Source: Branchiostoma floridae (Eukaryota > Chordata > Leptocardii > Amphioxiformes > Branchiostomatidae). From it: a DNA stretch of 64,000 nt. Each line of letters starts with the position of its first letter. Position 1 is the first letter of the stretch. The DNA lies in the NCBI RefSeq assembly GCF_000003815.2, contig NC_049989.1, positions 12,528,702-12,592,701 of the forward strand, given 5' to 3'. The position numbers and the translations under genes were made by a program. Below, piece by piece: positions 3,301 to 49,300 of this stretch. Below the pieces are notes generated by a model. The model saw nothing but the letters and a program-made list of their open reading frames with translations, was not told the DNA's origin and made no database searches.

Positions 3301-6300
3301 AGCCAGCCTTACACTCCACAAAGGGCACCAGGTTCTGTAGCTCTATGGTGAAGGGCTGGGTGACAGTCTGGATCGCATCACTGGTCCACAACTGTTTGGC
3401 TTCCTCAACTGCTTCTGAGAAAAGGATGTTTGTTGGAGTTAGATTTTTATCAAATAAGAGTATTGGGTTCCTTGCATAAGATATCTAAAATGAATACTAT
3501 CTTTTACTGCTTACTAATAGCACTTTGTCAAAGTTAAATGTTACAGTACAGATACAGATCTGGAACTATATGTAAGTCTCTGTACCAGTACCTGTACCTG
3601 ATTTCAACTAGTTTGGGTACACAGTGCTAGCTCCAAACCTATAGTTTGTATAAAACATGAGATAGAAGATGGCTAGCATTTTGAACAATAACAGTGTATA
3701 CTAGAAGATGTACAAGCCTTACTACTGTTACTACATCTTGTCTATTTCCATTACTGATAGTACTGGTGGATAACTTGATTCTGTATACAACATGTATTTT
3801 TTCAGGCTGCTGAGATATCAAAGTGAATGCTACACAAGTTCAATGTTATCCTACTGGTGTATAGTGCACAATAAACAGTAGGACAGGTAGTATTAATGGT
3901 AATTTAAAACAATAACCAGTTTTGGCTTATCTGCGTGTCTGTCTGATTGCCTTGTTGTAGAATAATGAAATAATGAGATATATTTTGGTTTGCAGGGTTG
4001 GACTAAAGTTTTCTAAAATTCACTTGTCCTATGGGGCAAGTACATGAAAAATTCACTTGCCTGAACCAACTTTTTACTCGCCCAAAATTGAATGTTGACA
4101 TTTTTCTATGTATTAACACTTCCAGTAATTGAATTCTTTCACTTTTGGCTCAATTTTTTTTCAAGACCAATGCCTGATGCCATGACTGAGAAAAGTGACT
4201 AGTATCAAAATTGCACCCATGGAAAAATCGTACTTGTCCGATCGGGCAAGTGGGGAAGGACATGCGCTTGCCCAATCAGCACTTTCACTTGCCCGGGACA
4301 ATTGGACTAGTGGACTTGTCCAACCCTGGTTTTATTTTTCCAATGGTTACTTAAATGTACTCAGGCCATATGAACATGTGCTGTGGTCTTCACAAATCGC
4401 AAATTTTCTACCTGGGACACACTCCGGTTCTGGTTCGGGCGGGTCCCCAGACATCACACGGATCAGGTTCATCTGGATACGGGTCTTCTCCTCTGCAGAC
4501 GTGAGCGTGTACTGACCAATCAGCTCCAGCGATATGGAGATGTACTCCTGTACATTGGCCACCAGGTACGCACACTTCAGCGCACAGGTGAGGATAGCAG
4601 TGAGCAGGGCCCACCAGCGCTCACTACGATAGTCCCACAGTACCTGTAACAGAACACACCTGAGTTAAGGTTCAGAAACGCACACTTCAGCGCACATGTG
4701 AGGATGGCACTGAGCAGGGCCCACCAGCGCTCACTACGATAGTCCCACAGTACCTGTAACAGAACACACCTGAGTTAAGGTTCAGAAACGCACACTTCAG
4801 CGCACATGTGAGGATGGCACTGAGCAGGGCCCACCAGCGCTCACTACGATAGTCCCACAGTACCTGTAACAGAACACACCTGAGTTAAGGTTCAGGTACG
4901 CACACTTCAGCGCACAGGTGAGGATGGCAGTAAGCAGGGCCCACCATCACTCACTACGATAGTCCCACAGTACCTGTAACAGAACACACCTGAGTTAAGG
5001 TTCAGGTACGCACACTTCAGCGCACATGTGAGGATGGCAGTGAGCAGGGCCCACCAGCGCTCACTATAGTAGTCCAACAGCACTTATAACAGAGCATTTA
5101 TTTGTTATTGTTTTTATTTATTTCTGGTTTATTTCAGCAGGGTAGCTCCCTTGGGGTTGATAAGCACTGTTCTTCAGGGAGGTTCTGGGTACACACATGC
5201 ACACACAATGCAATATTTATATATAATATAAAGTTTATTGCAAATTCTGTATTGCTAATTGTAGGTAACATGAGAGATTCAAACAAATTGAATGTAAAAA
5301 CAATATCACAGGTGTCTACACTAGTCTAAAACTAGTAAAAGCTAACTCTAGATCCTGGATTATTGGGTTCAACTCCTTTTTCGAAGACAGTGGAGGACAA
5401 AAGATCCCACCTTTTCTATTATGTGTAGGTTTTGTGATGTTAGAAGGAGAATTGTTTTCTTTTTGTCGGTGAATGTTAAAAAGTTTGGATGGAATTTGGT
5501 GGCCTCTTCAAACAGCTCTTTTCTTTTGTGATCGTAGAAAGAGCAGTTTGACATAAAATGTGTAACAAAGTCTCATTGTCAAATGACAAAATCATATCCA
5601 TACACAAAAACAAAGCGGAGGCAAGAAAAAATCAAAGACTGTGTTACCCTGGTGAGCAGGGTGAGTGCCTTTCCGTAGTCCTTAGCATGATAGTACTCCT
5701 CTCCCATCTGCACCATCAGGTACCGCTTCATCCGGGCTGACTTGTACTTCTTGAACTGGGCCACAGCACTGCTGAGCAGGGGGATGATGATCCAAGAGTG
5801 GTCCACAGTCAACTCTAACAACTGCGGGGGAGATACATGCATGAAGGGAGGTGGCCAGGTAGTCTTGTTTTAACATTTGTTGTCAATAGTGCTATTTGTA
5901 TGTTCAGGTTCAGGTTCAGAATTTCAGCTTCAGGAGTCCAGACCTGGAACAATGGCATATGTGTGCTACATCTACTAAACATACCACACATTTTAATTGA
6001 ATGTCAAATTGCATGTAGACATAGGTATAGATTTTACATGCAACTTGAGAAATACTCAAATACAGTAAAAGCTGCTTAATTGCACACCCCATTTGCCAGT
6101 GCATTTTGTGCAAATATCCAAATGGTGCAACAAAGCAAAGTTATTTAAGCTGGACTGCACCACCAATGGGATTTGGGGATTTTGTGCAATTGACAGAAGC
6201 GTGTGATTATCCGTTGTGCAATTAACTGGCTTCTACTGTACACCCAAAAGCTCAGTTGTAGCTAACAGTAATGTTTCAATCTTTTTAAAACAAATTTACC

Positions 6301-46300: not shown

Positions 46301-49300
46301 TGATGGGACTGTGGTCGAACATGGTGGGGCTGCTGAGCTGGTGTGTTACACTGGCTGGCTATACTGGCTAATATATAGATACAGATAGATACAGACCTGT
46401 CTGGTGATGGGACTGATCAAACATGGCGGGACTGCTGAGCTGGTGTGTTACGCTGGCTGGCTATACTGGCTATATAGATACAGATAGATACAGACCTGTC
46501 TGGTGATGGGACTGTGGTCGAACATGGCGGGGCTGCTGAGCTGGTGTGTTACGCTGGCTGGCTATACTGGCTATATAGATACAGATAGATACAGACCTGT
46601 CTGGTGATGGGACTGATCAAACATGGCGGGACTGCTGAGCTGGTGTGTTACGCTGGCTGGCTATATAGATACAGATAGATACAGACCTGTCTGGTGATGG
46701 GACTGTGGTCGAACATGGCGGGACTGCTGAGCTGGTGTGTTACGCTGGCTGGCTATACTGGCTATATAGATACAGATAGATACAGACCTGTCTGGTGATG
46801 GGACTGTGGTCGAAGATGGCAGGACTGCTGAGCTGGTGTGTTACACTGGCTGGCTATACTGGCTAATATATAGATACAGATAGATACAGACCTGTCTGGT
46901 GATGGGACTGTGGTCGAACATGGCAGGACTGCTGAGCTGGTGTGTTACGCTGGCTGGCTATACTGGCTAATATATAGATACAGATAGATACAGACCTGTC
47001 TGGTGATAGGACTGTGGTCGAACATGGCGGGACTGCTGAGGTGCTGCAGGGGTTTCTCCTCCAACCGTTCTGCCTGTCGACGCAGGACCATGTCCACATT
47101 CCCTCTGTTGGCTCCCCAAACCATCTGTCATAAAGGCAAACATGTTAGAGATATTTTCAAGTAGGGATGCGTACCTAAACCCACGTTTAGGTACAGGTCC
47201 TGATTCGAATCCAGAGGTTTAGGTACAGGTCCGGACCTAATGAGTCCGGACCTAAATGCATGGCATTGAATATTATATCATAATATTATGTTATATTATG
47301 TTATAATGGCAAAACAATGTATTAAAAAGGGTAGAAGCATGTTTGAACCAATAAAAACGTGTTTATTATGGTAGACACACGATGCAACAAAAATTTGACC
47401 CTTGTTGCTTTTCCCTCACTGGGGCTCAGAGACTGCTATGGTGATTTCACAGTAATTTTATCTGTCAAAGTGGCCATCCCCTGACCTGTTATCCTGCCTG
47501 GCTTGCACTAATTAGATACAGGTCCAGTACCGGTACACCAGGGTTCGGTATTTTTGTATCTGTACCTAATTGATTGTACCGGTACTGTATCGGTACTGTA
47601 CCGGTACACATCCCTATTTTCAAGCAATCAAGGAATCAATCAATCAAATACTGATGCAAGATGGTTGTAGAAATCACATTTTAGTAGTACAGTACAGTGT
47701 TCTCACCAGGAATTTTTCACAGCGTCGGGCAGGGGTCCGGGGGCCGCCGGTGCCGGCAGAGCCCCGGTGGGGGGACCCAGGGGGGCGAAGCCCCCCGGAA
47801 GCTCTTGCATTTTAGGCTATTGAGAAGGCTTATTTCATCATTTTTTTAGGGCCATATCTACGATAATCGCAGCAGTCACTTAACTTCTCGTCAGCAGTTT
47901 GACGTAACAATATTTCGGGTCAAAGATTCACAGACAACTAAAAACTCATACGGTCATAAACAACAAACTTTACTCAGCTCAACAGTACTTAAAAATATTG
48001 TCCTGGTTGCCATCCGAAGTTGAAGCGCTTGTTTATAGCGCTAGTATCGCTGTTAGCAGCCGTGCCACTTTTGTTGACGGTCTCCCTGCGTCGCCGCCTC
48101 GCCGTTAGAGTTTAGACGATATTCCCACGGACATGTTTCAAGAAAATATACCCGGTAAAAACCGCTGTTCCGCGTCAGATTCCATTCTTTAAAACATGTG
48201 GGACTCCGTGTTACAGTCTAATAAATATTTTGTAGAAGCACCGCTGTGGGAAAGAAAGTCCAAGGAATGTAATATTACGTTGAAGTTCACTGTAAACTTG
48301 CACACGGCACATGACTGAAACTGTAAAGAACAGCCGCGTTTGATTGATAGCCGGCGGCCCTTTGATCAAATCGGAAAGGTGCCGATACTGCCCTGGCGGT
48401 TTGTGGGCGGGGCCACAAGGGGAGGCTTGTCGGCGAAACTATTAAACGCCCGGGTTTTACATACAAACTTACGATGGTTTGTATCTTGCGAATGCCGATA
48501 CAAAGAGCTTCAAATTTAGAACAGGAATTTTGGGAAAGCGACCCGCTCTTGCTCCAGAATTATGTCGGAAAGAATTGATTCTATTTCCAGCGCTGAAGTA
48601 AAAATTACGCAACTATCAGTAACAGCCTATGTTGGTCAACCCAGCTCCCCAAATAAGGGCATTCCCCGGGAACTGGCTGTTCCGGGGAGATATCCCACCC
48701 CACTGATCACTCGCAGCACACGCGCTACTCATTTTATTTATTTTTTTTGGCACGAACGCAGGGCGGCACACGCAAAATTTAGAACAGGAAACTTTGGAAC
48801 GCGACCCGTTCTTGCTCTAGAAATGTGTCAGAAATAATTGATTCTATTTTCCGTACTGAAAAAGAAAGACGCAACTGCTAGTAACAGCCTCTGTTTATCA
48901 ACGCCGCTGTTCCGGCTGTTCCGGGGAGAGATCCCACCCCGCTAATCACGTGCGGGCAAGGCCCTCTCGCGTCTGTGTTTACATTTCCGCGCGCGGGAAC
49001 GCAAGGGTGGGAGGGGCTGCGAAACGCGGTACGGCGGGTCGGTGCTGTAAAACACCTCACTTTGAGCTGATAACTTCCTGAAACAGCGAAGGCGCGTGCT
49101 TGGCGCGTGCCTATGTATTTTTACTACGATATTTTTCTTTTATTCCCCATTTTTTTGCCGCTACGCTGGATGAAAAAGCAGCGTAGCGGGCTTTTTACAG
49201 CGTCATTTTTCCAGCCCACAGCGTATCGGCCCGCTATGCTGAAAAGGCCTGGTGAGAACACTGCAGTAGAAGCCAATTAATTGCATAACGGATTACCACA

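What the first reader, a model, noticed from the sequence alone, without database searches (positions are those of the whole stretch)
4412..47124. Three independent tandem arrays, each spanning the splice junction of the exon it touches
Seen: arrays at 4569-5095 (110 bp, acceptor side), 8211-8596 (41 bp, donor side) and 45178-46998 (~101 bp, donor side) all begin within a conserved exon, include its splice site and extend into the intron. Two genes are affected in 64 kb. Chance minisatellites should not start at exon edges three times. Inference: the junction sequence may be prone to slippage or R-loop-linked duplication, or copies extending into the exon body are removed by selection so that only intron-ward growth survives. 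Either way this could be a general source of cryptic splice sites and new exons.
Basis: partly seen in the sequence, partly recalled or inferred. Interest (0 to 1): 0.85.

Follow-up and report, generated by a model that had tools for sequence, protein, structure and literature searches.

The report
Repeated splice junctions in amphioxus genes
Three tandem repeats in this lancelet-like genome copy the edge of an exon together with its splice site, a phenomenon already described in amphioxus genes as "mirage" minisatellites, and rough counts suggest it is common there.

Summary
Three tandem arrays (110, 41 and 101 bp units) each start inside a conserved exon, include its splice site and run into the intron. 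Two are in TRAPPC11 and one is in EZH2, all on the minus strand. Splice sites, counting the real one, are intact in 19 of 19 (EZH2 donor), 9 of 9 (TRAPPC11 donor) and 4 of 5 copies (TRAPPC11 acceptor). Using a decoy would shift the frame or meet a stop in every case but one.

The phenomenon is in print as amphioxus "mirages" (PMC3087553, PMC3902484; passages). The same genome holds a 158-bp acceptor-side array at 1 of 9 globin loci, fitting the published BflGb6 mirage. These are new members of a known kind.

Enrichment at exon edges gave mixed results. In random sequence 3 of 20 arrays span an edge against 1.8 expected, not significant. Genome-wide, three spaced perfect donors (CAGGTAAG) occur 1620 times against 17, 25 and 106 for three permuted motifs. 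Part of that is a dispersed repeat family, but the first three unique loci in list order all span an exon edge.

Preferential formation is plausible but unproven; the slippage or R-loop mechanism was not tested.

The parts
4412..4643 (-). TRAPPC11 exon whose acceptor side is repeated (acceptor TTACAG|GTACTG; donor at 4412)
   Evidence: Foie-gras_1 match, PDB 7b6h_A alignment, exon finder
4568..5093 (-). 110-bp array A1: first 76 bp of the exon plus intron end, 4.8 copies; acceptors at 4643 (real), 4753, 4863, 4973 intact, outermost at 5083 degenerate (ATAAG)
   Evidence: TRF; site positions and frames
8555..8753 (-). TRAPPC11 exon whose donor side is repeated (donor CAG|GTAAGC at 8555)
   Evidence: aligned to PDB 7b6h_A residues 187-251, the match reaching the last residue before the donor; exon finder
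8210..8590 (-). 41-bp array A2: last 36 bp of the exon plus 5 bp of intron, 9 copies; 9 of 9 copies have CAGGTA, 8 of 9 CAGGTAAGC
   Evidence: TRF; donors
46996..47124 (-). EZH2 exon (phase 0/0) whose donor side is repeated (ACAG|GTCTGT at 46996)
   Evidence: lies between the EZH2 exon ending RRADEVK (about 49881) and the EZH2 exon at 44061-44180; no match elsewhere in the genome outside its own array at E <= 1 (15 matches, all at this place)
45178..47040 (-). 101-bp array A3: last 45 bp of the exon plus about 57 bp of intron-side sequence, 18.5 copies; 19 of 19 donors intact (GACAGGT)
   Evidence: TRF; donors; intron-side part has no match over 11 bp elsewhere in the window

Best explanation
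These are mirage minisatellites: a short segment straddling an exon-intron junction was tandemly duplicated. The array then grew and was partly homogenised by slippage or unequal exchange. It was tolerated because the exon body and one authentic splice site stay intact and the exon-proximal site gives the correct reading frame. Shown: anatomy, conserved exons, intact decoy sites, frame consequences, and the same structure at a globin gene and other loci of this genome. Inferred: the duplication process, use of the exon-proximal site in RNA, and near-neutral persistence.
For: Arrays and edges. Frame logic: all four A1 decoys give a stop (aa 8 or 58). All 18 A3 decoys give a stop at aa 59. Of the 8 A2 decoys, only the one at 8420 (135 nt, 45 aa) is both in frame and open. 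Positive control: of 9 globin loci, L037 carries a 158-bp x 4.2 array over its exon acceptor, fitting the published BflGb6 mirage of 150-160 bp on the acceptor side (PMC3087553, passages). Arrays of the same kind, judged by eye, occur in random sequence (L018:1607-2306, L018:4697-5049, L022:9503-9874) and at 3 of 3 loci taken in list order from the genome-wide donor-triple search. For those three, one exon matches a dynein family above Pfam's cut-off, one below it, and one has no match.
Against: No RNA data: use of the exon-proximal site is not shown. None of the arrays was checked against raw reads. Six CCT gene loci (32 kb) have no array of period >=25, and 8 of 9 globin loci have no such array over the exon, so the phenomenon is uneven across genes.
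Confidence: 0.88

Rival explanations
1. Chance: minisatellites arise anywhere, and those that happen to include an exon edge survive because they do no harm; there is no preference for junctions. (This concerns why they lie at edges and does not exclude that they are mirages.)
For: Random sample: 3 of 20 arrays (period >=35) judged to span an edge against 1.78 expected, P(>=3) = 0.26. Over 28 random arrays, units carry no stronger splice-like motifs than matched control segments (KS p 0.16 donor, 0.43 acceptor).
Against: Window: 3 of 7 vs 0.59, P = 0.015, post hoc. The expected 1.78 is probably too high, since the exon finder also exons in reversed random sequence against 104 in the real one. 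Genome-wide donor triples 1620 vs 17, 25 and 106 for permuted motifs, though not normalised exactly for single-site frequency and inflated by dispersed families.
Confidence: 0.45
2. Assembly artefact: repeats created or expanded by misassembly.
For: PMC3087553 (passages) notes that the draft version of one BflGb6 haplotype appears aberrantly assembled, so copy numbers can be wrong. PMC3902484 (passages) found different copy numbers in two assemblies.
Against: Copies differ from each other. The same kind of array is reported for Adh3 and globin genes. For PGBD5, Sanger and Illumina data confirmed the sequence, which its authors say argues strongly against assembly error.
Confidence: 0.05
3. Selected function: the decoy sites are kept because they regulate splicing or produce alternative isoforms (for example the in-frame 45-aa extension in TRAPPC11).
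For: In the inner copies of the window arrays 0 of 30 splice-core columns vary against 32 of 158 other columns (Fisher p 0.002); the A2 donor at 8420 is in frame and open.
Against: The 32 is inflated by one A3 copy with a deletion compared without gaps. Older arrays do vary in the core (L018:4697-5049, L022:9503-9874). All decoys but one would shift the frame or meet a stop.
Confidence: 0.06

Closest known systems
Amphioxus mirage minisatellites (Adh3, globins BflGb6 and BflGb9, PGBD5, troponin C; PMC3087553 and PMC3902484, passages read)
   Same: Tandem repeats (units of 10-72, 60, 108, 150-160 bp reported) spanning an exon-intron boundary, on donor or acceptor side, in conserved genes; many copies keep AG/GT.
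   Different: New genes (TRAPPC11, EZH2), and A3 has more copies (18.5) than the globin case described (6 and 3 units in two haplotypes). No genome-wide count was seen in the passages read.
[quoted passage not shown] Rogers model as cited in PMC3087553)
   Same: A tandem duplication crossing an intron-exon boundary supplies extra splice sites, as in array A1.
   Different: In potato a new intron was detected; here there is no evidence that any decoy is used.
Variable internal tandem repeats at exon-intron boundaries of human genes in segmental duplications (PMC2812944, passages read)
   Same: Minisatellites at exon-intron boundaries that can generate alternative splicing.
   Different: There in recently duplicated human genes, with transcript evidence; here in conserved genes of an amphioxus-like genome, without transcript evidence.

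Membership tests
Amphioxus mirage minisatellites | Tandem array with several units | tested here: met
   TRF
Amphioxus mirage minisatellites | Unit spans the exon-intron boundary and repeats the splice site | tested here: met
Amphioxus mirage minisatellites | Found in an amphioxus genome | tested here: inconclusive
   513 Mb genome; globin locus with a 158-bp acceptor-side array as published for B. floridae BflGb6. The record is unnamed; the match of genome size to B. floridae is recalled.
Amphioxus mirage minisatellites | Regular splicing of the mRNA is not disturbed | not testable with these tools
   no RNA data
Amphioxus mirage minisatellites | Length instability between haplotypes or somatically | not testable with these tools
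   one assembly only
Amphioxus mirage minisatellites | Copies at the cluster boundary escape homogenisation | tested here: inconclusive
   outermost copies of A1 and A3 lack the repeated flank and are somewhat diverged, but the margin over inner copies is small

The most novel reading that the evidence does not exclude
In this genome tandem duplication preferentially captures splice junctions, so that splice-site-bearing minisatellites number in the thousands (my extrapolation from 3 in 200 kb) and form a standing, population-variable supply of duplicate splice sites from which new exons and introns can arise.
Probability: 0.35. Interest if true: 0.65.

Novelty: new member of a known kind. Interest (0 to 1): 0.4.

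Why it matters
Intron gain is rarely caught in the act. If junction-spanning arrays are as common in this genome as the sample and motif count suggest, amphioxus offers many natural cases in which the path from duplicated splice site to new exon or intron could be followed, and a test of how the spliceosome picks one site among up to 19 near-identical ones.

Tried and rejected
Scoring splice-like motifs in the repeat units of 28 random arrays gave no overall excess; 4 of 28 had a donor and 3 of 28 an acceptor in the top tenth of controls, the three acceptors all in L018. The test is insensitive, since array A3 itself does not stand out in it. Exon edges there were then judged by eye and with a home-made exon finder, which also exons in reversed sequence against 104 in the real random sequence, and which called L022:9503-9874 on the other strand from my reading. 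Predicted edges also overlapped arrays as spanning at L018:711-1066, L022:2917-2988, L022:3939-4247 and L024:2748-2837; I did not accept these. L018:711-1066 reads as coding through the putative acceptor by my own reading of its unit; the two L022 arrays and the weak L024 call were not resolved. The whole-exon array L018:5944-6142 was not counted either; with it the random count would be 4 of 20, P = 0.09.

The source of A3's intron-side part was sought in the window and not found. The claim that decoy sites are under selection was considered and set aside. A further control (AATGGCAG) and a second donor motif (CAGGTGAG) did not complete, because the genome machine was busy. The kinase family search was busy and not repeated.

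Full report
What is there. TRF confirms three arrays, all on genes of the minus strand: A1 at 4568-5093, A2 at 8210-8590 and A3 at 45178-47040. The A1 and A2 exons are TRAPPC11 (Foie-gras_1 for A1; PDB 7b6h_A alignments, the second reaching the last residue before the A2 donor). The A3 exon has no family or structure match of its own. It lies between EZH2 exons at about 49.9 kb (RRADEVK) and at 44.06-44.18 kb, in matching phase; the RRADEVK exon and the phase were assigned by eye. Its peptide matches nothing else in the genome at E <= 1 except copies in its own array. A PDB query over a wider stretch in one frame gave no match. An exon finder trained on 29 CCT exon cores of this genome plus four exon cores of the window (the A1 and A2 exons among them, not the A3 exon) recovered 28 of the 29 CCT cores it was trained on, and calls 4412-4643, 8555-8753 and 46996-47124.

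Anatomy. A1 repeats the first 76 bp of the exon with the intron end. A2 repeats the last 36 bp with 5 bp of intron. A3 repeats the last 45 bp with about 57 bp of intron-side sequence that has no match longer than 11 bp elsewhere in the window. Splice sites, real one included: 4 of 5 A1 acceptors are intact (the outermost is ATAAG); 9 of 9 A2 copies have CAGGTA and 8 of 9 CAGGTAAGC; 19 of 19 A3 copies have GACAGGT. If splicing used a decoy, A1 would meet a stop at aa 8 or 58 for all 4 decoys and A3 at aa 59 for all 18. Of the 8 A2 decoys, one (8420) would add 45 aa in frame without a stop; the others shift the frame or follow a stop. So the model requires the exon-proximal site; this is inferred, not shown.

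Known or new. [quoted passage not shown] Passages of PMC3902484 add PGBD5 and troponin C. The original Adh3 paper is not held (the first id was recalled wrongly, the second came). The window's genome has 513 Mb. Of its 9 globin matches, L037 carries a 158-bp array over the exon's acceptor, as published for BflGb6. I therefore file the three arrays as new members of that kind. Searches for a genome-wide survey (the lists of 10 and 42 are capped) showed none that I recognised as one. Opened were PMC3087553 and PMC3902484 (passages), PMC2812944 (passages) and PMC4974935 (abstract).

How frequent. In 20 random 10-kb stretches (192 kb without N), 28 arrays have period >=25 and 20 have period >=35. 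By eye, 3 of the 20 are mirages: L018:1607-2306 (acceptor), L018:4697-5049 (donor) and L022:9503-9874 (donor). Two of the three lie in the same 10-kb stretch, probably one gene, so they are not independent. Dropping a unit at random predicts 1.78 of 20, P(>=3) = 0.26; in the window 3 of 7 against 0.59, P = 0.015, post hoc. The expected numbers rest on predicted exons, some of them false (36 in reversed sequence against 104), so they are probably too high. Six CCT gene loci have no array of period >=25, and 1 of 9 globin loci has a mirage.

Genome-wide motif count. Three perfect CAGGTAAG donors with gaps of 30-60 occur 928 + 692 = 1620 times. The reversed motif gives 17, the permuted motif GTCAAAGG 25 and its reverse 106. 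From the random sample, a permuted motif should give about 53 triples, or 27 loci, per genome, an estimate from only 14 triples. Single-site counts in the 264 kb of window plus sample are 21 for CAGGTAAG, 8 of them in A2, and 19 for GTCAAAGG, which was picked from the more frequent of 700 permuted motifs (mean 8.4). The reversed control is a rare motif (1 in 192 kb), so that contrast is too favourable; the single-site count of GGAAACTG was not taken. Counted by eye from the rows, chromosome C1 (35.3 Mb) has 16 loci, 6 of them in dispersed families that look related and 10 unique. This scales to about 233 and 145 per genome, against 14 loci for GTCAAAGG (all 25 rows). Of the unique loci I could fetch only the first three in list order. 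All three span an exon edge by my reading: two donor-side, and one acceptor-side with the gene on the other strand, so that there the motif itself is incidental. Of their exons, one hits dynein AAA_8 above Pfam's cut-off, one the dynein stalk below it (19.3 against 24 bits), and one has no match. The excess is large for this motif, but how much reflects preferential formation, survival, or spread of repeat families is not resolved.

Selection on decoys. In the inner copies of the three window arrays (4, 8 and 18 copies; 110, 28 and 50 columns around the site) no splice-core column varies (0 of 30, against 32 of 158 elsewhere, Fisher p 0.002). But the 32 is inflated by one A3 copy with a deletion compared without gaps, and the older arrays in L018 and L022 do vary there, so I do not claim selection.

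Verdict. Enrichment at exon edges is plausible and worth a proper genome-wide test. The proposed slippage or R-loop cause is untested.

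Noticed in passing
L018:5944-6142 and L018 as a whole: One random 10-kb stretch with Cys-rich exons holds an acceptor-side mirage, a donor-side mirage and an array of what looks like a whole small exon with its own acceptor and donor (95-bp period).
   Followed up: partly
G000 C1:9479866, C1:20226040, C1:29239901, C2:1602081, C2:2329245: A dispersed family of 51-bp tandem repeats carries both donor-like and acceptor-like motifs in each unit (rows); it may be a mirage that spread, or an unrelated element.
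   Followed up: no
L044 and L045 (C1 about 238-245 kb): Two exons with dynein heavy chain matches, about 6 kb apart, carry a donor-side and an acceptor-side array; probably one gene.
   Followed up: partly
window 13610-14470 and L019:4669-5254: A 163/164-bp tandem repeat looks alike at both places, on opposite strands, by eye from the units: a dispersed repeat, not at an exon edge.
   Followed up: no
window 44500-44713: A 108-bp x 2 duplication between EZH2 exons carries a strong donor-like motif on the plus strand but lies at no predicted exon edge.
   Followed up: no
window about 31300-35300: Long overlapping open frames on the plus strand with a masked stretch look like a retroelement with a recombinase-like end (recalled resemblance).
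   Followed up: no
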